Shown in pieces: positions 10,386 through 23,909 of a stretch of 64,000 nt of DNA; the first letter of the stretch is position 1; every line of letters begins with the position of its first letter. Both the position numbers and the translations under genes were made by a program. The notes beneath the pieces are model-generated. The model was given only the letters and a program-made list of their open reading frames with translations. It made no database searches and had not been told where the DNA came from. The stretch comes from a virus, in the IMG/VR virus record IMGVR_UViG_3300037264_000690, positions 30,414 to 94,413 of that record. One strand, 5' to 3'.

Positions 10386-11297
10386 ATGCTCAGAAAGACT
10401 ATGCTTGCAACTGCGTTTGTCATCATGATGGCAGCCATCACGGTGTCACAAAAGGTCGAAGCACAGAACAAGCCAGCATTCAAGGTTTCTCAGTATCTGC
10501 AGGACATTAGCGTCACAGTTCGCGCCGGCCAGTTCTCTGGCTCCGGAGTCATGGTGCAGACTAGCGACGGTCAAATCTGGATCTGGACGGCTGCTCACGT
10601 CACCGAGCCTCTACGTCGCACACACGAAGTCCTCGACGACAAAGGCGTGAGGCGTCTGAAGGTTGAGTTCGACGATGCCAATATCCTCCGATTCAACAAG
10701 AACAAGGAGGAAGGTCGCATCGTGTCAAGTTATAGCGGCGACGCTGAAGTGATCCGCTACTCTGACTCAAAGAATGGTCATGATCTATGTCTGTTGCGAC
10801 TGCGAGATAAGGACTTCAAGCCAAATAGCTCGGCGAAGTTCTATCTCGAAAAGGGCATCCCTGATATCGGTGAGGACCTGTACCACTGCGGCTCACTACT
10901 CGGACCAATCGGTTCCAATAGCTTGACCAGCGGTATCATGTCTCAGCACGGTCGTGTGTTCGATGGTAGGATTTACGATCAGACGACTGCAACGTCGTTC
11001 CCGGGCAGCTCGGGCGGCATTGTCTGTCTCAAGTTGGATGGACGCTACGTTGGCATGCTGGTGATGGGTGCCGGTGAAGGCTTCGGTCTCATCGTTCCAG
11101 TCAGACGAATGATAGACTGGTCTAAGAAGACTGGTGTTGAGTTTGCACTGGATCCGGCTGTCAAGGTGCCAACCGACGAAGAGTTGCGTAGCAAACCAAT
11201 TGAGGACGGTGTCTTCAGTAGTGGTGGCACCAATCAACACAAGCAGCGTGAAGCCGCCAAGCTGAAGTTTATGCTGAATAATCACCGCGACGATTAG
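10386..11297 (+). CDS. secreted trypsin-like serine protease
   Basis: 303 residues, SD GGGGGG. Residues 1-26 form a signal peptide (basic start, hydrophobic core, VEA cleavage site). The catalytic triad of the chymotrypsin/DegP fold is visible: His71 in WTAAHV, Asp133 in HDLCLLRL, Ser209 in PGSSGGIV. No PDZ domain follows; the C-terminal 50 residues are charged. The product should act outside the cytoplasm, for example on envelope proteins or as a released protease. It is unlike prohead proteases, which lack signal peptides. An exported protease in a phage replication region is unusual. Confidence 0.85.
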   Translation: MLRKTMLATAFVIMMAAITVSQKVEAQNKPAFKVSQYLQDISVTVRAGQFSGSGVMVQTSDGQIWIWTAAHVTEPLRRTHEVLDDKGVRRLKVEFDDANILRFNKNKEEGRIVSSYSGDAEVIRYSDSKNGHDLCLLRLRDKDFKPNSSAKFYLEKGIPDIGEDLYHCGSLLGPIGSNSLTSGIMSQHGRVFDGRIYDQTTATSFPGSSGGIVCLKLDGRYVGMLVMGAGEGFGLIVPVRRMIDWSKKTGVEFALDPAVKVPTDEELRSKPIEDGVFSSGGTNQHKQREAAKLKFMLNNHRDD

Positions 11298-11815: not shown

Positions 11816-12457
11816 ATGGCAGAGGAACAGAGAAAGATTTGCACCAGCTGCTACGTTGGTCGTCCGCTCAGTGATTTCCGGTTGAATAAGCGAGTGTTGC
11901 CATCTGGTGTCGTCCGACTGTATTATTCGAGCCCATGTCGAATCTGCCGTCGGAAGCTGGAAAAAGAGCAGCGTGGTGTAAAGGCAAAAACGATCAAGCG
12001 TGTTAATAAGCCGCAGTGTCGTAGGCAATACCAACCGGCCACGATCATTAGTACCGGTCACCGCACAAGTACCGACAAGACACATGCCCAGCACCTTCGC
12101 TGGACTTACGGTTTATCACTTGAAGACTACAACAAAATCTATGACCGGCAGCGGGGTCGCTGTGCAATTTGTCAACGTAAGCCACACCAAATACCCAGCC
12201 GGCAACGACGCCGGCTGGTTGTTGACCACGATCACACTACCGAGCAAGTTCGAGGTTTGCTGTGTCATGATTGCAATTTGGCTCTCGGTTTGTTTCGAGA
12301 TAACCCAGTGCTTATAGAAGCTGCTATGGCTTACTTGAAAGGATATTCGTGTCACTCTTCAAATTCTTCGGAGAACAAGGAGATCTGCACGGCGGGCGAC
12401 TCTTCTGGTCACGCAACTTGCCTGTTCCGTTCAAAGGCACGCATGCACCAACGTTAA
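11816..12457 (+). CDS. endonuclease VII-type HNH nuclease
   Basis: 213 residues, SD GGGAGG. Residues about 97-175 match the recombination endonuclease VII family: Y.LSLEDYNKIYDRQ, zinc cysteines C116/C119 and C150/C153, catalytic VDHDH (136-140) and RGLLCHDCN. The N-terminal 60 residues hold a further CxxC/CxxC pair. T4 gp49 of this family resolves DNA junctions, but many phage copies act as free-standing homing endonucleases. The last 35 residues lie over the start of the next gene and look like out-of-frame read-through, suggesting insertion upstream of it. Confidence 0.85.
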   Translation: MAEEQRKICTSCYVGRPLSDFRLNKRVLPSGVVRLYYSSPCRICRRKLEKEQRGVKAKTIKRVNKPQCRRQYQPATIISTGHRTSTDKTHAQHLRWTYGLSLEDYNKIYDRQRGRCAICQRKPHQIPSRQRRRLVVDHDHTTEQVRGLLCHDCNLALGLFRDNPVLIEAAMAYLKGYSCHSSNSSENKEICTAGDSSGHATCLFRSKARMHQR

Positions 12458-12795: not shown

Positions 12796-13645
12796 AAAGA
12801 CTGCAGCTGCGTCAGATGCACCTCTAGTGCCTACCCGTGGGCTTGAACTAAATGAGGATTGGGGTCAGCATCGTAATAAGTTGCTCAAGACCTTAGCACT
12901 GCTTGGGTTGAGTAGTGCTGCTATTGGCGGTGGTATAACTGGAGGTTTCGGTCTGCATCGCTTGCATCAAATGCGTAATGAGAAGCCAGAGGCTCTGCCT
13001 GGTAATATCCCGCTCACCATGCCGCCTGGTAGGCTACCACCTAGCGATGAGCCGGAGAAGATTGCAGCCTCAGTACCGTTTGGACACTGGAAGCAGCTCA
13101 TTGGTATGACTGCACAACATCCGTCTGACATTCCACTTGGCTGGCTTGCGGCTCCGGCTGTCGGCGTCGGTGGCCTACTTGGCAGTAGCGCTCTAATGAA
13201 TCGGATTTTGCATAACAAGATGAAGAGCGTACGTAGCAACGAGCTGGCTCAGTCACAGCAAGAGTTCGACAAGGCAATGTTAGAGCAGTATGACAGTCCG
13301 CAGCTACGTAGTGAGAAGATCAGCTCGGCTCTTGACTACCTATACGATGCAGTCGAGAAGCAAGCAATTAGCTCGATTACACCTGGTGCGGTGACCTCAA
13401 CCGACAAGCAACCACTAACAGATGCTAGCAGCTCTGGTAGTGTACTTGGTCCGCTGGCGCTAGCAGCCGCACTAAGCGGTAGTTTCGGTCTGCGCGCTGG
13501 CTATCGTTGGGCGGAAGGACGCAAACCTGAAAATCTACTGCGTGATGTCATGAAGCAGAGAGCGCTTCGCCGTGCACAGGCCATGCCTGAATCGATTCAG
13601 TTCGCAGCACCAAGGCCGGCTGATGAACAGGAACTTGACGAATAA
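12707..13645 (+). CDS. multi-segment membrane protein
   Basis: 312 residues. ATG at 12707 is preferred (GGAG eight bases upstream); an in-frame TTG at 12644 lacks an SD. Three Gly/Ala-rich hydrophobic stretches (roughly 62-88, 143-165, 258-280) could span a membrane, separated by charged, helical regions. No catalytic motif. Its stop overlaps an ATG of the RNAP reading frame. It may be membrane-bound or an internal virion protein; not recognised. Confidence 0.65.
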   Translation: MSFPLVQAVYKVRGGMLGLLGSNTHPLVSEKTAAASDAPLVPTRGLELNEDWGQHRNKLLKTLALLGLSSAAIGGGITGGFGLHRLHQMRNEKPEALPGNIPLTMPPGRLPPSDEPEKIAASVPFGHWKQLIGMTAQHPSDIPLGWLAAPAVGVGGLLGSSALMNRILHNKMKSVRSNELAQSQQEFDKAMLEQYDSPQLRSEKISSALDYLYDAVEKQAISSITPGAVTSTDKQPLTDASSSGSVLGPLALAAALSGSFGLRAGYRWAEGRKPENLLRDVMKQRALRRAQAMPESIQFAAPRPADEQELDE

Positions 13646-13659
13646 TGTTGGAGGGCACG

Positions 13660-16600
13660 ATGCCTAGTATTGTCACCGTGGGGCCAACGCATGACTCCGT
13701 TGAGAGCAGTGCGACGGCGACCACTACTAAGCTGCCAGCACAGCCGCCGCAGCAACGGTCCATTGTAGCTGGTCCTCCACCAGCCCCGGTGACGATGCGC
13801 TCATTCGGTGACTCCGACGCTACCCGCAAAGCTATCTATGATAACGTGCTCAAAGCAGCACAAGATATTCAGCCGGTAGCCAACAACCGTTACAGTCTTG
13901 AGCTAAACGAACCGCATTGGTCCAGTGACGAAGGTGTGTCTATCAACGAACGCAAGAGAGCCATCCTTCGCGGTGAGACACTGAACCGTCGGCTGCGTGG
14001 CACCTGGCGGCTCAAGGACGTTCAAGGTAACCTTGTCAGCGAACGTCTTGCTACGGTTGCGCACGTTCCTCGCATGACTAACCAGGGCACTTTCGTCGTT
14101 AACGGTTCCGAGTACACACTTGGCCATCAGATGCGATTGCGACCTGGTGTCTTCACACGTCGTAAGGAAAATGGTGAGCTGGAGAGCCACATCAACATCA
14201 TGCCCGGTAAGGGTCTGAGCCATCACTACTTCCTGGAACCAGAGACTGGCATTTTCAAGATCCGTGTTGGCCAAGCTAATATGCCACTCGTTTCAGTTAT
14301 GAAGGCGATGGGTGCCACCGATAGCGAATTGCGTGACGCCTGGGGTGCCGAGCTACATGGTCTTAACGCACAGAAGGACGATCCTCGCGTTATGGACAAG
14401 CTCTATGCTCGACTTATCGGCAAGAAGGGTGATCCTAATGCCAGTCTGGAAGACAAGCGTCAAGCAGTTGGTAAGGCGTTTAGTGAGATGGAGCTAGACC
14501 CAGAGGTCACAAAGCGGACACTTGGTCAGCCTTATGGTCGCCTCGGTAAAGAAGTTGCCATAGCGACCACCAAGAAGCTGCTTGGTGTCAGTCGCGGTGA
14601 GGCTGACACCGACGATCGTGACGCGCTAGCTTTCCAGCACTTCATGGGACCGGAAGACCTGTTCGCTGAGCGTATTGGCCGCGACAAGCGGGTACTCAAC
14701 GAACTGCTCTGGAAGGCGACCACGCACGGCAATCTGGATAAGATGCCGACTGGCGCCTTCACCAGACATATCCACGCCGCGCTGCTGGACAGTGGGCTGG
14801 GGCAGTGCTTTGATGTTGAAACAAAGGTGCTGACCGCGCGTGGTTTCATCGCTTGGCCAGTAGTCACCGAAGACGATCTATTTGCTTGCTTGATAAACGG
14901 CAAGTTGAGCTACCACAAAGCTTACAAGCTGTTCAAGTATGAATACGATGGACAGCTATACTGTCGAACAACAAAACGGCTTGATTATTGTGTTACACCT
15001 AACCATCGTTTGTGGTGTAAGTCTAAGTTCTACTCTGATTATCAGACAGAGTTAGCTGAACAAGCACACGGCAAGACCAGAATATTCAACATCGCGCTTC
15101 CACCATATGATGGTGTTGATACGGATTTCGTGTTGCCTTCAGTTAAAACAGGTCGGTGGCAGAATGACACTGGTCCGCTAACTACGCCTGGTGACATCTG
15201 GGCTAGTTTTCTTGGTTGGTATATTAGTGAGGGTTGGGTGTCAACCGAGACGCAGCGAAACGGTAACGAGACACGGCGTATCTGTATCTCGCAGTGTCCT
15301 GTAGCGCATCCGGTGGAGCATGCCGAGATAATTCGTGTGCTGTCGCAACTACCGTGCAAGTGGAATTACAATCATAGCAACAAAACATTCTGTATCAACA
15401 ACAAGCAGTTTGTTGAAGAAGTTGCAAAGTATGGTAGTAATGCTCGGGTTAAGCGTATACCACGATACTGCTTTAGTTGGACTAATCGACGGTTGGCATT
15501 GCTGTTGGATGCCTACATGGCTGGCGACGGCAATGTTTGCAATGGACACCACAAAGCTGAAACTGTTTCTGAACAACTTGCTGAAGATTTGTCGGAAGCC
15601 TTCAATCGTCTTGGTAATGCAGTTTATATCTCAAAGCGGAAGCTAAGTGAAAAGAATCCTGCGTGGGCCGATAGCTATGTTGTTAGTGTACTGAAGACTG
15701 GCTCTACAACTGCATTTGGCCACACTTGTCACAAGCGTCACTATGTAGGTCCGGTCTACTGTGCTCATGTACCTGGAGAGCGTCTTTACATTAGCCGCAA
15801 TCGACGTAACTCCTGGAGTGCCAATAGTTTAGAAGAGATAAATCCAGCAGATGTGTTCGATCAGCAGACCCGAGTCAGCCGACTTGGCTATGGTGGCATT
15901 CCCAGTATCGACGCTGTTCCCGATGAAGCTCGTTCAGTGCAGCCAAGCCACTTGGGTTACATCGACCTGCTCCGCACCCCGGAGTCGTTCAAGGTCGGTG
16001 TCGACTCGCGTGTGAGCCACGTTGCCAAGAAGGGCAGCGACGGGCGCATCTACACGCCATTCCTGGATCCCAAGTCGGGTCAGATGGTCTATCGCAGCCC
16101 GCAGGACGTGGCTGACTTGACACTGGCCTTCCCCGGCGAGCTGCAAAAAGGCAAGCCGCTGGTCGCCGCCATTGTTGGCGGCAAGACCCGGTATGTCCCG
16201 CGCGATCAAGTTGACTTGGCCATGCCGCACGCCGAGCACTGGTTTAGCCCGATCAATAACATGGTGCCAATGAAGTCGGCCGTGAAGGGCCAACGTGCCG
16301 CCATGGCCTCCCGCTTCCTCACTCAGGCCCTGCCGATCAAGGATGCTGAGTCCCCACATGTCCGTGGTCAGGTGCCGGGTGCTGTGGGTCGATCGTTCGA
16401 GGAGCACTATGGCAATCAAGTTGGTGCAGTGTTCGGCGAGCAACAGTCTGGTCGAGTCACTAGCGTGTCGCCCGATGAGATCACCGTCAAGTACGCCGAT
16501 GGTTCGACCAAGACCCACGAGCTGTACAACAACTTCCCATACAACCGGAAGACTTACATTCACAACGAGTCGCTAGTGCAGAAGGGTGACCCAGTAAAGC

Positions 16601-19152
16601 CTGGGCAATTGCTTGCCAAGTCGAACTACACCGACCAACATGGTCACGTTGCCCTGGGCAAAAACCTACGTGTGGCTTACGTTCCGTTCCGTGGGCTTAA
16701 CTATGAGGACGCCTACGTTATCTCCGAGTCAGGTGCCAAGAAGCTCTCCTCTGAGCATATGTACCAGCACGCGATGGAGTGGGATGAGCGGCATCGCAGG
16801 GGCCTCAACAGCTTCATTAGCATCTTCCCGGGCACTTTCCAGAAGCCACAGCTCAGGGGTATGGACACCGATGGTATTGTGAAGCCTGGTACTGTACTCA
16901 AGCCTGGTGATCCGGTTGTCCTTGCCGCTCGCGAACGTGAGTTGTCGCGCAAACAGGTTCACACCTCGCATAAGGGCAGCTTCATTAACGACTCACTCAC
17001 CTGGGATCACCATGCCGAGGGTATGGTCACTGACGTTGAGAAGACCGATAAGGGCGTGACAGTCGCGGTGAAGAGCCTCAACCAGCTGCAGGTCGGCGAC
17101 AAGATGTCTGGCCGCTATGGTGATAAGGGTGTCATCGCTGACGTTATACCTGATGATCAGATGCCGCATGATGAAGAGGGAAACCCCTATGAAGTGCTGG
17201 CCAATCCGCTTGGCGTTATTAGCCGCACTAATCCAGCTCAAATGATCGAGGCTACTCTTGGCGCAATTGCTGCTAAGACAGGTAAGTATTATGCTATCGA
17301 TGACTTCTCCAATATTAAGGACTTGACTGAGTATGCCATGAAGGAGCGTGAGAAGCACGGACTTAACAACTTCGGCAAGATCTTCGACCCAACCACTAAC
17401 AAGTCCATCGACAATGTCTTCACTGGCAATCGCTTCTTCATGAAGCTGCACCATACGTCAGAATCGAAGGGACAGGGTCGCGGTCTGGGTGGTTACACTG
17501 CTGAGGGCATGCCGGCCAAGGGCGGCGTCGAGGGTAGTAAGCGGATGGCCCTCATGGATGTCAATGCGATGCTCTCGCACGGTGCTGTCGAGACGCTGCG
17601 TGACGTCAAGTTGATTCGTGGTCAGAAGAACCAGGAATACTGGTCGAACTTCATGCAGGGCAATCGGCCACCGACGCCACGTGTGCCGATCGTCTACGAG
17701 AAGTTCGTCAACTACCTCAAGGCTTCTGGCGTCAACGTCGTCCGTAAGGGCACGCAGACACACCTGATGGAGTTGACTGATAAGAACGTCGATGACATGG
17801 CTGGCGACCGTGAGCTGCAGAACGTGAAGACGGTCGACTGGAAGACTGGTTTGACCCCCATCAAGGGCGGCCTCTTCGATGAAACGCTTACCGGCGGTCA
17901 CAACGGCAACCGCTGGGCCAAGATCACTCTGCACGAGCCGATGCCCAATCCAGTCATGGAGGAGCCGATCCGTCGACTGCTAGGTTTAACCAAAGAGAAG
18001 TTCGAGAAAGTAATTGCTGGTAGTGACCAACTTGGCGGTAAGACTGGACCAGAGGCTATCCAGAGTGCTCTGGCAGGCGTCAACGTGAAGCAGGCGCTAG
18101 CTCAGTGCCAGGCAGATATTAAGTCGGGTCGGAAGACCTTGCGTGATATTGCTGTGCGGAAGCTGCAGTTCCTCAAGTCGGCAGAGATGAAGGGCATTCA
18201 CCCCAAGGATTGGATGATGACCAAAGTCCCGGTCATCCCGCCCATGTTCCGTCCAATCTCGGTCATGCAGCAAAGCGGTGGTCGGATCATTAGCGACTCC
18301 AACTACCTCTACAAGGAGCTCTTCGACGCCAACCAGGCGCTCAAGGATGTGAAGGGCGTCTCGGAGGATATCGGTGACGAGCGACTTAACCTGTATAACG
18401 CCTATCGTGGCGTCACCGGCCTGGGCGACCCCGTTCATCCTAAGCTTCAGGAGAAGAAGATTAAGGGCTTCCTGCAGCATGTCTTCGGTACTAGCCCGAA
18501 GTTCAGCACAGTGCAGCAGAAGTTGATCGGTACTACGGTCGACCTAGTTGGTCGCGCAGTGGTTGTGCCAAATCCAGACTTACACATGGATGAGGTGGGT
18601 CTTCCCGAGGCCCGCGCCTGGGAAATCTACACTCCGTTCATTGCTCGTCGGCTAGTCAAGCAGGGCGTGCCCCGTGTGCAGGCCCTGGAGCACGTCCGTA
18701 ACAAGCATGACTTGGCCAAGCGGGCAATGCTTGAAGAGATCAACGAGCGTCCAGTTATTGTGACCCGAGCGCCAACTCTGCATCGCTACGGACTCATGTC
18801 ATTCTGGCCACGATTGACAAAGGGTGAGACTCTGCAGATCAGCCCGATTGTGGTTGGTGGCTTCAACATGGACTTTGACGGTGACGCCTCGAACTATCAC
18901 GTCCCGGCTTCTGATGAAGCGCGTAATGAAGCAGTGGACAAGCTGATGCCCAGTAAAAATCTATTCAACGTTAGCCGGTTTCAGGCGCACTACCTTTTAA
19001 GGCAGGAATACATAGGAGGAGTCTACAACGCAACTGCAAAAAAGAATGATAAGCCATCGCGAGTTTTTGCTACCAAACAAGACGCCTTGCGAGCATTCTA
19101 TAATGGTAGTCTGCAGCCAGCTGATCCGATCCATATTGTAGGTGACAAATGA
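13660..19152 (+). CDS. RNA polymerase beta + beta' N-terminal fusion, with intein
   Basis: 1830 residues (about 1490 after intein removal). Start at 13660 has SD GGAGGG; an in-frame ATG at 13645 is less likely. Beta blocks in order: GTFVVNGSEYTLGHQ (cf. GTFIINGTERV), the rifampicin-pocket/fork region rejoined as SLEEINPADV...SRLG, NYEDAYVISE, GDKMSGRYGDKGVI, then the YTAEGMPAKGG block. Beta' blocks follow: PVIPPMFRP, IVTRAPTLHR and the catalytic NMDFDGD (1736-1742) with all three Mg-binding aspartates. The protein stops just after the active-site domain; the rest of beta' is the gene at 22023. No alpha or omega is seen. It likely makes a phage multisubunit RNAP. Confidence 0.93.
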   Translation: MPSIVTVGPTHDSVESSATATTTKLPAQPPQQRSIVAGPPPAPVTMRSFGDSDATRKAIYDNVLKAAQDIQPVANNRYSLELNEPHWSSDEGVSINERKRAILRGETLNRRLRGTWRLKDVQGNLVSERLATVAHVPRMTNQGTFVVNGSEYTLGHQMRLRPGVFTRRKENGELESHINIMPGKGLSHHYFLEPETGIFKIRVGQANMPLVSVMKAMGATDSELRDAWGAELHGLNAQKDDPRVMDKLYARLIGKKGDPNASLEDKRQAVGKAFSEMELDPEVTKRTLGQPYGRLGKEVAIATTKKLLGVSRGEADTDDRDALAFQHFMGPEDLFAERIGRDKRVLNELLWKATTHGNLDKMPTGAFTRHIHAALLDSGLGQCFDVETKVLTARGFIAWPVVTEDDLFACLINGKLSYHKAYKLFKYEYDGQLYCRTTKRLDYCVTPNHRLWCKSKFYSDYQTELAEQAHGKTRIFNIALPPYDGVDTDFVLPSVKTGRWQNDTGPLTTPGDIWASFLGWYISEGWVSTETQRNGNETRRICISQCPVAHPVEHAEIIRVLSQLPCKWNYNHSNKTFCINNKQFVEEVAKYGSNARVKRIPRYCFSWTNRRLALLLDAYMAGDGNVCNGHHKAETVSEQLAEDLSEAFNRLGNAVYISKRKLSEKNPAWADSYVVSVLKTGSTTAFGHTCHKRHYVGPVYCAHVPGERLYISRNRRNSWSANSLEEINPADVFDQQTRVSRLGYGGIPSIDAVPDEARSVQPSHLGYIDLLRTPESFKVGVDSRVSHVAKKGSDGRIYTPFLDPKSGQMVYRSPQDVADLTLAFPGELQKGKPLVAAIVGGKTRYVPRDQVDLAMPHAEHWFSPINNMVPMKSAVKGQRAAMASRFLTQALPIKDAESPHVRGQVPGAVGRSFEEHYGNQVGAVFGEQQSGRVTSVSPDEITVKYADGSTKTHELYNNFPYNRKTYIHNESLVQKGDPVKPGQLLAKSNYTDQHGHVALGKNLRVAYVPFRGLNYEDAYVISESGAKKLSSEHMYQHAMEWDERHRRGLNSFISIFPGTFQKPQLRGMDTDGIVKPGTVLKPGDPVVLAARERELSRKQVHTSHKGSFINDSLTWDHHAEGMVTDVEKTDKGVTVAVKSLNQLQVGDKMSGRYGDKGVIADVIPDDQMPHDEEGNPYEVLANPLGVISRTNPAQMIEATLGAIAAKTGKYYAIDDFSNIKDLTEYAMKEREKHGLNNFGKIFDPTTNKSIDNVFTGNRFFMKLHHTSESKGQGRGLGGYTAEGMPAKGGVEGSKRMALMDVNAMLSHGAVETLRDVKLIRGQKNQEYWSNFMQGNRPPTPRVPIVYEKFVNYLKASGVNVVRKGTQTHLMELTDKNVDDMAGDRELQNVKTVDWKTGLTPIKGGLFDETLTGGHNGNRWAKITLHEPMPNPVMEEPIRRLLGLTKEKFEKVIAGSDQLGGKTGPEAIQSALAGVNVKQALAQCQADIKSGRKTLRDIAVRKLQFLKSAEMKGIHPKDWMMTKVPVIPPMFRPISVMQQSGGRIISDSNYLYKELFDANQALKDVKGVSEDIGDERLNLYNAYRGVTGLGDPVHPKLQEKKIKGFLQHVFGTSPKFSTVQQKLIGTTVDLVGRAVVVPNPDLHMDEVGLPEARAWEIYTPFIARRLVKQGVPRVQALEHVRNKHDLAKRAMLEEINERPVIVTRAPTLHRYGLMSFWPRLTKGETLQISPIVVGGFNMDFDGDASNYHVPASDEARNEAVDKLMPSKNLFNVSRFQAHYLLRQEYIGGVYNATAKKNDKPSRVFATKQDALRAFYNGSLQPADPIHIVGDK
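14806..15825 (+). mobile_element. LAGLIDADG intein within the RNAP beta domain
   Basis: 340 residues in frame (residues 383-722). It begins with Cys (CFDVETKVLTARGF, block A), has TPNHRLW (block B), two dodecapeptide-like helices (FLGWYISEGWV and LLLDAYMAGDGN) and ends VYCAHVPGERLYISR...SWSAN before Ser723. The penultimate residue is Ala instead of the usual His. Splicing would join GLGQ to SLEEINPAD in the conserved rifampicin-pocket region, the usual kind of site for an intein. Mid-region is more A/T-rich than the flanks, in keeping with separate origin. Confidence 0.92.
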
Positions 19153-19607
19153 CTGACCATCGTTGGAACTGGAAAGGCGGCAAGAAAGCTGGGCTTGCCA
19201 GAAAGAAAGCTGCTGGTATCTGTGTAGATTGTACAAACGAGACCAATGGCTGTGTGAAGTGCGATGCTTGCCGGCAGCGAGAAAAAGCTGGTCACAAGAA
19301 GAGGCATTCTAAACTAAAGAATGAAGTCTTCGCTGCCTATGGTGGTTACCACTGCAACTGTCCCGGTTGTGGTGAAACACGACCAAACTTCTTGCACATC
19401 GACCATGTCGACAATAACGGCGCCGAGCATCGCCGGCAGATGGGCGATCCAACTGGTGCCAACTTCTATTCATGGTTGAAGCAGCATGGCTTCCCATTAG
19501 GTTTTCAAGTTCTGTGCGCAAACTGCAACTGGGCCAAGGGTCGATATGGTAAATGTCCTCACGTCGATGAGGTCGAGAAGATTGCTAAGATTCCGTTACA
19601 CTACTAA
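19149..19607 (+). CDS. HNH homing-type endonuclease
   Basis: 152 residues; ATG overlaps the RNAP stop (ATGA). The N-terminal module has CVDC...CDAC (about 25-41) followed by a basic helix. The HNH domain has CPGC (71-74), HIDHVDNNG (83-91), EHRR and LCANCN (122-127). It is the same family as the genes at 34997 (fragment) and 36858. Free-standing HNH genes spread by cutting alleles that lack them, often next to essential genes. Here it lies exactly at the end of the beta'N coding region, where beta' is split. Confidence 0.88.
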   Translation: MTDHRWNWKGGKKAGLARKKAAGICVDCTNETNGCVKCDACRQREKAGHKKRHSKLKNEVFAAYGGYHCNCPGCGETRPNFLHIDHVDNNGAEHRRQMGDPTGANFYSWLKQHGFPLGFQVLCANCNWAKGRYGKCPHVDEVEKIAKIPLHY

Positions 19608-22009: not shown

Positions 22010-22022
22010 AGGTATGGAAGCC

Positions 22023-23909
22023 ATGCTCCACACAACCGCAGGTCAGCTAGCTGTTAACGAACTCCTCCCAGAGGAGATGCGTGACCATGCTCGCATCCTC
22101 GACAAGAAGGGCATCTCGCAACTCTTACAAGAGGTTGCCGAGAAGTACCCTGATAAGTACCGCGACATTGCTCATGGCTTATCCAAGGTCGGATATCATT
22201 CTGCTTATCACACTGGCGGACACAGCTTCGACTTGACGCACATGCGCACTGCTCGTGCGGCACTAACGGCCCGTCAGGAGATCGAGACCAAGATTCAGCA
22301 GATCCACGCCAACCCGCATTTGTCACCCGAGATGAAGGACAATCAGGTCATCGAGCTGGCGTTGAGCCATCATCAACCATTGACCGAGGCCATTCTGCAC
22401 GAAAGCAAGAAGGAGGGCAATCCCCTGGCCGAGCAAGTCACTGCTATCGGTCGTGGCAACCCGGTCAGTCTCAAGTCGCTGCGTGGTAGTGACCTCATGT
22501 ATGTCGACCACAAGGATCGGCCCATTCCAATCCCGATCCTTCGCAGCTACTCTGAGGGCCTGGAGCCGGTCGAATATTACGCTGGCACCTTCGGTGCTCG
22601 GAAGGGTGTCATGGACACCAAGTTCGCCACCCAGGATGCTGGTGCCCTGTCAAAGCAGTTCAACCAACTCGCCCATCGACTGGTCGTCACCAAGCACGAT
22701 CATGACGACGCGAACCATCACGCTCATCAGGGCATGCCTGTCGAGTTGGATGATCCTGATAACGAGGGTGCTCTGCTGGCTTATCCAGCAGGCGGCTATC
22801 CTCGCAATACCGTCCTGCGGCCCAAGATCCTCTCGCACTTGAAGAGTCTGGGTCTGAAGAACATAGTCGTTCGCAGCCCTATCACTACTGGTCCAATGGA
22901 CGGTGGCCTGTACGCCAGAGATGTTGGCTATCGCGAGCGTGGTGGTATTGCGCCACTTGGAGATAACATTGGCATCGCCGCCGCCCAGGCGCTTTCCGAA
23001 CCATTGGCACAAGCTCAGCTCTCGTCGAAGCACTCCGGCGGTATTGTCGGTGCGGCTAAGGGTGTCAGTGGCTTCAAGTTAATCAACCAGCTCACCCAGG
23101 TGCCTAAGACCTTCAAGGGTGGTGCTGCTCATGCCCAACTTGATGGCCGTGTTAGTGACATTGAAGTAGCGCCACAAGGCGGTAACTACATCGTCATCGG
23201 CGGCCAGCGACACTACGTTGGCACTGGTTACGACCCCAAGGTTAAGCGTGGGGATGAAGTCGAGGCTGGCGACGTGATCTCTGATGGCACTCCTAACCCA
23301 GCTGAAATTGTCAGGCATAAGGGCATCGGTGAAGGCCGTCGCTATTTCGTCGACTCCTTCCGCAATGCCTATAAGGAGTCTGGTCTGCCGCATCACCGTC
23401 GGAACATTGAAGTCATGGCTCGTGGCTTGATTGACCACGTTCGGCTAACTGAGGAGCATGGTCAGTATGTGCCAGGCGACATTGTGTCCTATAGCCGACT
23501 TGAGCATTCATATAAGCCGCGTGAGGGCAGCCTTCAGGGTGATCCGAAGCGAGCCATGAATCATTATCTGGAGAAACCAGTCCTGCACTACTCGATCGGC
23601 ACTAAGATTCGACCCAGCACTGTAAACACATTGCAGCAGTACGGCATCAAGAACGTCGTGGCTCATCCAGAGCCACCACCGTTTGAGCCGGAAATGATTC
23701 GTGGCATGGAGAACCTGAGTCATGATCCGGACTGGATGGTTCGCTTCCTTGGGTCATATCAGGAGAAGAATCTACTGCGCGGTGTTCACCGTGGAGACAT
23801 CAGTGAGGAGAAAGGCACCAGCTATGTGCCAGCACTGTCACGTGCAGTTGACTTTGGCAAGGTTGGGCCTGTGCAACCGTGGAAGCCGAGTTCGATCCTC
23901 AAGTCTTGA
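22023..23909 (+). CDS. RNA polymerase beta' C-terminal subunit
   Basis: 628 residues. ATG 22023 has GGAAG as SD; ATG 22014 is an alternative. The N-terminus (TTAGQLAVNELLPE...LDKKGISQLL) lines up with the beta' segment following TTVGRAIL. Then come the bridge-helix/trigger-loop block EYYAGTFGARKGVMDTKFATQDAG (with its conserved GARKG), and GDNIGIAAAQALSEPLAQAQL...KHSGG, matching VGVIAAQSIGEPGTQLT...FHTGG. With 13660-19152 it completes beta'. The break falls where cyanobacterial and plastid rpoC1 and rpoC2 are separate. It is reached only after four unrelated genes and two terminators, so it needs its own transcription or read-through. Confidence 0.92.
   Translation: MLHTTAGQLAVNELLPEEMRDHARILDKKGISQLLQEVAEKYPDKYRDIAHGLSKVGYHSAYHTGGHSFDLTHMRTARAALTARQEIETKIQQIHANPHLSPEMKDNQVIELALSHHQPLTEAILHESKKEGNPLAEQVTAIGRGNPVSLKSLRGSDLMYVDHKDRPIPIPILRSYSEGLEPVEYYAGTFGARKGVMDTKFATQDAGALSKQFNQLAHRLVVTKHDHDDANHHAHQGMPVELDDPDNEGALLAYPAGGYPRNTVLRPKILSHLKSLGLKNIVVRSPITTGPMDGGLYARDVGYRERGGIAPLGDNIGIAAAQALSEPLAQAQLSSKHSGGIVGAAKGVSGFKLINQLTQVPKTFKGGAAHAQLDGRVSDIEVAPQGGNYIVIGGQRHYVGTGYDPKVKRGDEVEAGDVISDGTPNPAEIVRHKGIGEGRRYFVDSFRNAYKESGLPHHRRNIEVMARGLIDHVRLTEEHGQYVPGDIVSYSRLEHSYKPREGSLQGDPKRAMNHYLEKPVLHYSIGTKIRPSTVNTLQQYGIKNVVAHPEPPPFEPEMIRGMENLSHDPDWMVRFLGSYQEKNLLRGVHRGDISEEKGTSYVPALSRAVDFGKVGPVQPWKPSSILKS

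What the first reader, a model, noticed from the sequence alone, without database searches (positions are those of the whole stretch)
14806..15825. Intein placed in the rifampicin-pocket region of a phage beta subunit
A 340-residue element with splicing blocks and LAGLIDADG helices would join GLGQ to SLEEINPAD, the segment equivalent to the E. coli rif pocket. Its penultimate residue is Ala rather than His. The pocket residues also differ from the rifampicin-sensitive consensus (His526 position appears to be Gln), so this polymerase is probably rifampicin resistant.
Basis: partly seen in the sequence, partly recalled or inferred. Interest (0 to 1): 0.75.

Follow-up and report, generated by a model that had tools for sequence, protein, structure and literature searches.

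The report
Intein splitting a phage RNA polymerase
A metagenomic phage carries a 340-residue insert with all the marks of a self-splicing, self-copying protein element exactly inside the part of its own RNA polymerase that corresponds to the rifampicin-binding pocket of bacteria, and its relatives show that such inserts have colonised this one gene at about fourteen different places.

Summary
Window 14806-15825 (+) encodes a 340-residue LAGLIDADG intein, in frame in a 1835-aa ORF that fuses RNA polymerase beta to the N-terminal part of beta' (DFDGD motif included). Removing exactly 340 residues restores the sequence of a close intein-free relative (L018, 82% identical; LLDSGLGQ|SLEEINPAD), the best of all offsets tried. 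Two alignments place the junction between E. coli beta 513 and 514, inside the rifampicin pocket. AlphaFold gives a confident Hint+LAGLIDADG fold (pLDDT 93.8) matching solved inteins. C1, TPNH, terminal Asn, +1 Ser and both endonuclease acidic residues are present. Lack of the penultimate His is a trait of its relatives (nearly all Gly; Ala here). A second phage (L072, polymerase 47% identical) carries an allelic intein at the same bond. In relatives the same gene holds inteins at about 14 sites; those at seven of them, this one included, form one gene-specific clade. Pocket residues 514, 516, 526 and 572 differ from E. coli in most of the phage family, so rifampicin resistance is plausible, but untested and unrelated to the intein. 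New member of a known kind, at a site I found no report of.

The parts
13645..19152 (+). Host gene: RNA polymerase beta fused to the N-terminal part of beta' (ends after the NMDFDGD catalytic motif), interrupted by the intein; 1835 aa
   Evidence: Pfam Rpb2_6 E 2.9e-49, Rpb1_2 E 6.4e-24; aligned to Arash, D69 and L018-L118; catalytic residues equivalent to E. coli beta E565, R678, K1065, K1073, R1106, H1237 and beta' D460/D462/D464 conserved
13645..14805 (+). N-extein, ends ...LLDSGLGQ (Gln = E. coli beta Q513)
14806..15825 (+). Intein, 340 aa, C1...N340; GC 46% vs 55% in the exteins
14995..15006 (+). Block B TPNH (residues 64-67)
   Evidence: alignment A4; His67 invariant in 17 inteins
15190..15231 (+). 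First LAGLIDADG helix (FLGWYISEG; acidic residue E142)
15484..15528 (+). Second LAGLIDADG helix (DAYMAGDG; acidic residue D241, invariant)
15742..15825 (+). Blocks F and G (YVGPVYCAHVPGERLYISRNRRNSWSAN): Cys in place of the usual Asp, no block F His, penultimate Ala
   Evidence: relatives: YCxxVPxxxLYVRRNGKxxWSGN
15826..15828 (+). +1 nucleophile, Ser (AGT) = E. coli beta F514 position
15826..19149 (+). C-extein (SLEEINPAD... through beta and beta'-N)
15826..15888 (+). C-terminal side of the rifampicin-pocket segment (E. coli 514-534 equivalents; H526 is Gln)
14785..14805 (+). N-terminal side of the rifampicin-pocket segment (E. coli 507-513 equivalents)
22014..23909 (+). C-terminal part of beta' as a separate ORF
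   Evidence: Pfam Rpb1_5 E 3.9e-21; 80% identical in L018

Best explanation
A bifunctional, mobile LAGLIDADG intein sits between the residues equivalent to E. coli beta 513 and 514 in a phage-encoded beta/beta'-N RNA polymerase. Shown here: the anatomy, exact boundary, predicted fold, allelic partner and empty-site relatives. Inferred: after translation Cys1 attacks (N-S acyl shift helped by block B Thr/His), the branch forms on Ser+1, Asn340 cyclises without a penultimate His, and the exteins are ligated as ...SGLGQ-SLEEINP..., restoring the pocket segment and an active polymerase. Also inferred: the LAGLIDADG domain cuts intein-free alleles at this junction, and repair copies the intein across during co-infection (homing). 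It belongs to an intein lineage that has specialised on this polymerase gene and occupies several of its most conserved, active-site-lining positions.
For: Exact in-frame 340-aa insert with all required residues C1, TxxH, N340, S+1. Intein-free relatives collinear across the site: L018, Arash, D69. Allelic intein in L072 at the same bond, LLNSGLAM|C...WSGN|SLEESNPM. High-confidence Hint+LAGLIDADG model matching solved inteins, and I-DmoI for the endonuclease part. Endonuclease acidic residues intact. Foreign base composition, GC3 0.44 vs 0.59/0.66. Patchy distribution: window+L018 and L072+L059 are each sister pairs at 100 in which only one member has an intein here, while the two inteins are sisters at 99/91. 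Polymerase active-site residues are conserved, so an unspliced 340-aa insert in the pocket would be expected to destroy an otherwise intact enzyme.
Against: No splicing, cleavage or homing was measured. The C-terminal splicing chemistry is non-canonical (no block F His, no penultimate His; Cys at the block F Asp position), so splicing efficiency is uncertain. The two allelic inteins are only 37% identical while their exteins are 47% identical, so recent homing between these two lineages is not shown; old vertical inheritance with many losses is possible. Intein_splicing (PF14890) does not score on this divergent copy.
Confidence: 0.92

Rival explanations
1. Splicing-defective or cleaving intein-like insert: the Hint domain only cleaves, so the phage uses a beta split at 513/514.
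For: Non-canonical blocks F/G and penultimate Ala. At the neighbouring 566/567 site two relatives (L020, L080) have Met/Leu at +1, so loss of the splicing nucleophile does occur in this lineage. Split RNA polymerase subunits are normal in other phages (PMC7598289).
Against: All chemical residues (C1, TxxH, N340, S+1) are kept in the window copy and in L072; relatives lacking the penultimate His share the C1...N|C/S/T layout, suggesting a working family variant. The extein alignment to intein-free relatives continues without loss or decay on both sides.
Confidence: 0.05
2. Conditional splicing: the intein works as a post-translational switch that holds the phage polymerase inactive until a signal (redox, temperature) triggers splicing.
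For: Insertion in a functional pocket; two Cys that could pair (C1 and the block F Cys319); general precedent that some inteins respond to environment (background knowledge).
Against: The closest phage L018 and about 80% of non-redundant family members have no intein detected anywhere in the gene (18 of 86 with one), so no such switch is needed. Intact endonuclease and patchy distribution are what a selfish element predicts.
Confidence: 0.03
3. Group I/II intron with an ORF, or a free-standing homing endonuclease, rather than an intein.
For: Vibrio phages D181/D148 do carry a group I intron plus HNH gene in the same polymerase gene at another position.
Against: No Rfam intron in the window; the insert is fully in frame, begins C and ends N|S, and its model is a Hint fold.
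Confidence: 0.005

Closest known systems
Allelic intein in IMG/VR contig 3300035698_034402 (L072)
   Same: Same insertion bond (E. coli beta 513/514 equivalent), C1, block F Cys, ...WSxN|S, double LAGLIDADG; sister in the tree (99/91)
   Different: 37% identical; penultimate Gly instead of Ala; host polymerase 47% identical; not previously described as far as I could find
Gordonia phage GMA6 terminase intein and mycobacteriophage BeanWater/Cane17 nucleotidyltransferase inteins
   Same: End-to-end homologues of the window intein
   Different: 21-25% identical, in other genes, outside the polymerase-gene intein clade
Eukaryotic and NCLDV RNA polymerase second-subunit inteins (RPB2-a/b/c, RPC2, RPA2, RPO; PMC1635734)
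   Same: Inteins in the same subunit near the active centre; two (Bde RPB2-c, Ddi RPC2) lie in the fork domain; viral polymerase inteins (Marseillevirus LCMAC101, Catovirus, E. huxleyi virus) are among the best structural matches
   Different: From the +1 Cys and the alignment positions given in that paper I infer their fork sites at about E. coli 558-569, not 513/514 (inference, not tested); Ddi RPC2 ends with the standard His-Asn
Multisubunit RNA polymerases of phages (phiKZ/AR9 jumbo phages, PMC7598289; mReC Caudovirales, PMC7481178)
   Same: Phage-encoded beta/beta' homologues; in the jumbo phages too beta' is split after the catalytic barrel
   Different: Here beta and beta'-N are one chain; neither paper mentions inteins; membership in mReC not tested

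Membership tests
Intein with LAGLIDADG homing endonuclease (class 1) | In-frame insert whose exact removal restores a collinear homologue | tested here: met
   L018, Arash and D69 collinear; claimed excision best of all offsets
Intein with LAGLIDADG homing endonuclease (class 1) | N-terminal Cys/Ser, block B TxxH, C-terminal Asn, +1 Cys/Ser/Thr | tested here: met
   C1, TPNH 64-67, N340, Ser+1
Intein with LAGLIDADG homing endonuclease (class 1) | Penultimate His in block G (common, not strictly required: splicing inteins without it are known, background knowledge) | tested here: not met
   Ala; relatives nearly all Gly
Intein with LAGLIDADG homing endonuclease (class 1) | Hint fold plus two LAGLIDADG motifs with acidic residues | tested here: met
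   AF2 pLDDT 93.8; Foldseek to TliVMA, PI-PkoII, PI-SceI, I-DmoI; E142 and D241
Intein with LAGLIDADG homing endonuclease (class 1) | Protein splicing activity | not testable with these tools
   needs expression
Intein with LAGLIDADG homing endonuclease (class 1) | Homing: cuts the intein-free allele | not testable with these tools
   Patchy distribution, foreign GC and intact catalytic residues are indirect support
Class 3 intein | No N-terminal nucleophile; Trp (block B) / Cys (block F) / Thr (block G) motif | tested here: not met
   Cys1 present; block F Cys319 present; the block B Trp is 3 residues after the His and varies to F/Y in relatives. That Cys319 takes part in the chemistry cannot be excluded
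Multisubunit-type RNA polymerase beta/beta' | Catalytic DFDGD and the conserved active-site residues of beta | tested here: met
   NMDFDGD; E565, R678, K1065, K1073, R1106, H1237 equivalents conserved
mReC Caudovirales polymerase clade | Placement in the mReC branch of the polymerase tree | not tested
   The paper's alignment was not available; the published filter required NADxDGD, this protein has NMDFDGD

The most novel reading that the evidence does not exclude
The intein is one member of a lineage that became specialised on a single phage gene and spread within it. In a tree with 25 inteins from other genes or unidentified ORFs, 19 inteins from seven different sites of this polymerase gene form one clade (100/97), largely subdivided by site, so the element appears to have moved from site to site inside the same gene rather than between genes. 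With the other inteins found, the gene offers about 14 distinct insertion sites, roughly twice the 6-7 reported in Prp8.
Probability: 0.6. Interest if true: 0.68.

Novelty: new member of a known kind. Interest (0 to 1): 0.55.

Why it matters
An intein exactly in the rifampicin pocket means the phage polymerase should not have a normal active centre until the intein has removed itself, so splicing should gate phage transcription. The family offers natural empty, allelic and neighbouring-site versions, which makes intein homing, site-hopping within one gene and splicing without a penultimate His directly testable. Practically, annotation pipelines that expect clean beta/beta' genes will miss or mis-split these polymerases. 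The rifampicin angle matters only as an indicator: pocket residues differ across most of the phage family, independent of the intein.

Tried and rejected
Group I/II intron: rejected, Rfam found none in the window and the insert is in frame. Known class 3 intein: rejected because Cys1 is present. Recent transfer between the window and L072 lineages: not supported, the inteins are more diverged (37% identical) than the exteins (47%). Co-conversion: the +1 Ser codon is AGT in both intein-bearing phages and TCT in the empty L018, but other relatives use several Ser codons, so this is only a hint. A cellular source: the genome scan gave only two weak actinobacterial matches at 24-25%, so no donor was found. 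The A4 alignment could not be used for the genome scan (error), so A3 was used. phmmer against PDB sequences found only PI-PkoII at E 0.04; structure search was needed. PF14890 and the NCBIfam intein-terminus models do not reach their cutoffs on this divergent copy. A library search for intein with rifampin and the beta subunit returned nothing; absence in the held library is not proof of absence. A formal test of one-clade origin for all 21 polymerase inteins of the tree did not finish.

Full report
What is there. The ORF 13645-19152 (+) encodes 1835 aa. Pfam finds beta domains (Rpb2_6, Rpb2_3) followed by the first domains of beta' (Rpb1_1, Rpb1_2), ending soon after NMDFDGD; the remainder of beta' is the ORF 22014-23909. 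G000 is an IMG/VR virus record of 94,413 bases and the window is 30414-94413 of it. The same beta/beta'-N fusion with a separate second part of beta' occurs in Salmonella phage Arash and Vibrio phage D69 and in about a hundred IMG/VR contigs. In some of those (e.g. L035, 2105 aa without an intein) more of beta' is fused on too.

Boundaries. Residues 388-727 (nt 14806-15825) run from CFDVETKVL to RNSWSAN and are followed by SLEEINPAD. The closest relative, L018 (82% identical), reads LLDSGLGQSLEEINPADVFDQQTRVSRLGYGG with no insert. Arash and D69 align without a gap across the junction once exactly 340 residues are removed. Testing all starts within about 13 residues and lengths 330-350, the claimed excision gives the best identity to L018 (115 of 120). 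The boundary is therefore supported by homologues, not only by motif reading.

Position in the polymerase. A MAFFT alignment with E. coli RpoB/RpoC and HMMER alignments to solved bacterial and Thermus beta chains are both ungapped here and put the insertion between E. coli beta 513 and 514. From background knowledge of rifampicin-RNAP structures, both residues touch the drug. In the window the pocket positions read: 510 Gly, 511 Leu, 513 Gln, 514 Ser, 516 Glu, 526 Gln, 529 Arg, 531 Ser, 533 Leu, 534 Gly, 565 Glu, 572 Asp. So 511, 513, 529, 531, 533, 534 and 565 match E. coli, while 510, 514, 516, 526 and 572 do not. Across the phage sequences of that table F514 and I572 are never found and H526 only twice, with or without an intein.

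What the insert is. The insert alone passes the Pfam LAGLIDADG_3 cutoff and matches phage inteins over its whole length. The alignment of 17 relatives (A4) shows invariant C1, H67, D241 and N340, and nearly invariant C319 and W337. AlphaFold2 gives pLDDT 93.8 and pTM 0.90. The best solved matches are TliVMA, PI-PkoII, PhoVMA, PI-PfuI and PI-SceI, and I-DmoI for the endonuclease part. The best viral model matches include proteins named RNA polymerase of giant viruses. GC is 46% against 55% in the exteins. The penultimate Ala stands where the relatives mostly have Gly, so the absence of a His is inherited by the group.

Allelic copy and distribution. L072 carries a 350-aa intein at the same bond, LLNSGLAM|CFDADT...HWSGN|SLEESNPM. 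In the polymerase tree the window pairs with empty L018 and L072 with empty L059, each at 100, whereas the two inteins are each other's closest kin, 98/97 in a 17-row tree and 99/91 in a 46-row tree. Only 22 of 103 family rows have Ser or Thr at the +1 column (L072 itself is mis-set by one there and also has Ser), which limits where this site can be occupied. The pattern fits invasion and/or repeated loss. The divergence of the two inteins (37% identical) exceeds that of the exteins (47%), so timing and direction are open.

A gene full of inteins. In-frame inserts with intein termini were mapped at E. coli-equivalent beta positions 513/514, 539/540, 548/549, 565/566, 566/567, 682/683, 762/763, 801/802, 1066/1067, 1077/1078, 1106/1107, 1266/1267, 1270/1271, and one early in beta'; Pfam supports most of those tested. 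565/566 and 566/567 differ by one residue and could be one site. Several abut catalytic residues (K1065-M1066, R1106). 18 of 86 non-redundant polymerases carry at least one detected insert of this kind. In the 46-row tree 19 inteins from seven sites (513, 539, 548, 565, 566, 1077, 1106) form one clade (100/97) excluding 25 inteins from other genes or unidentified ORFs, with the 513, 548 and 1077 sites each forming a supported subclade. The two 1066/1067 inteins fall outside it, unresolved, and the 762/763, 801/802 and 682/683 inteins are of a different type ending in HN. For comparison Prp8 is reported with six or seven sites (PMC5784728; PMC6805012 abstract) and eukaryotic/viral second subunits with six (PMC1635734).

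Mechanism and limits. Shown: anatomy, boundary, fold prediction, allelic and empty relatives. Inferred: splicing by the class 1 route with Cys1, Ser+1 and Asn340; homing by the LAGLIDADG domain. Not shown: any biochemical activity, rifampicin response, or expression. All genomes concerned, apart from Arash and the Vibrio phages, are metagenomic contigs, so single-read errors at any one locus cannot be excluded, but the window insert is supported by an independent allelic copy.

Noticed in passing
window 19149-19607 and 11816-12457: An HNH-like ORF overlapping the stop of the beta/beta'-N gene and an endonuclease VII-like ORF upstream; neither has a tblastn match in the L018 locus, so together with the intein three endonuclease genes distinguish this locus from its closest relative.
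   Followed up: partly
L020:9160-10170 and L080:9160-10179: Inteins at the 566/567-equivalent site with Met or Leu at +1 (GPEG|C...HWSGN|MNIG / LNIG), i.e. no splicing nucleophile; possibly cleaving or otherwise altered inteins.
   Followed up: partly
L073 ORF 6355-13506; L057 ORF 6826-12303: Non-intein in-frame insertion near position 258-272 of beta carrying 2H-phosphoesterase-like, LNS2/HAD-like and (L073) weak SET-like domains: enzymatic domains embedded in a phage RNA polymerase beta.
   Followed up: no
[quoted passage not shown]
   Followed up: partly
L101:8953-13992; L112:7912-13806; L117: Intein-like inserts of about 500-650 aa directly at the beta' DFDGD catalytic motif; termini unclear (L101 seems to start with Glu, L112 to end with Asp).
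   Followed up: partly
L023:4790-5821: Intein at the 1066/1067-equivalent site followed by an in-frame stop a few codons into the C-extein (YWSQN|SGRYG*), with a second intein further on; assembly error or broken gene.
   Followed up: no
L035, L092, L097 and others: Single-chain beta-beta' fusions of about 2000-2150 aa without inteins.
   Followed up: no
window 10386-11297: Trypsin-like peptidase gene (PF13365, E 2.2e-11) with a signal-like N terminus near the polymerase gene, also in L018.
   Followed up: no
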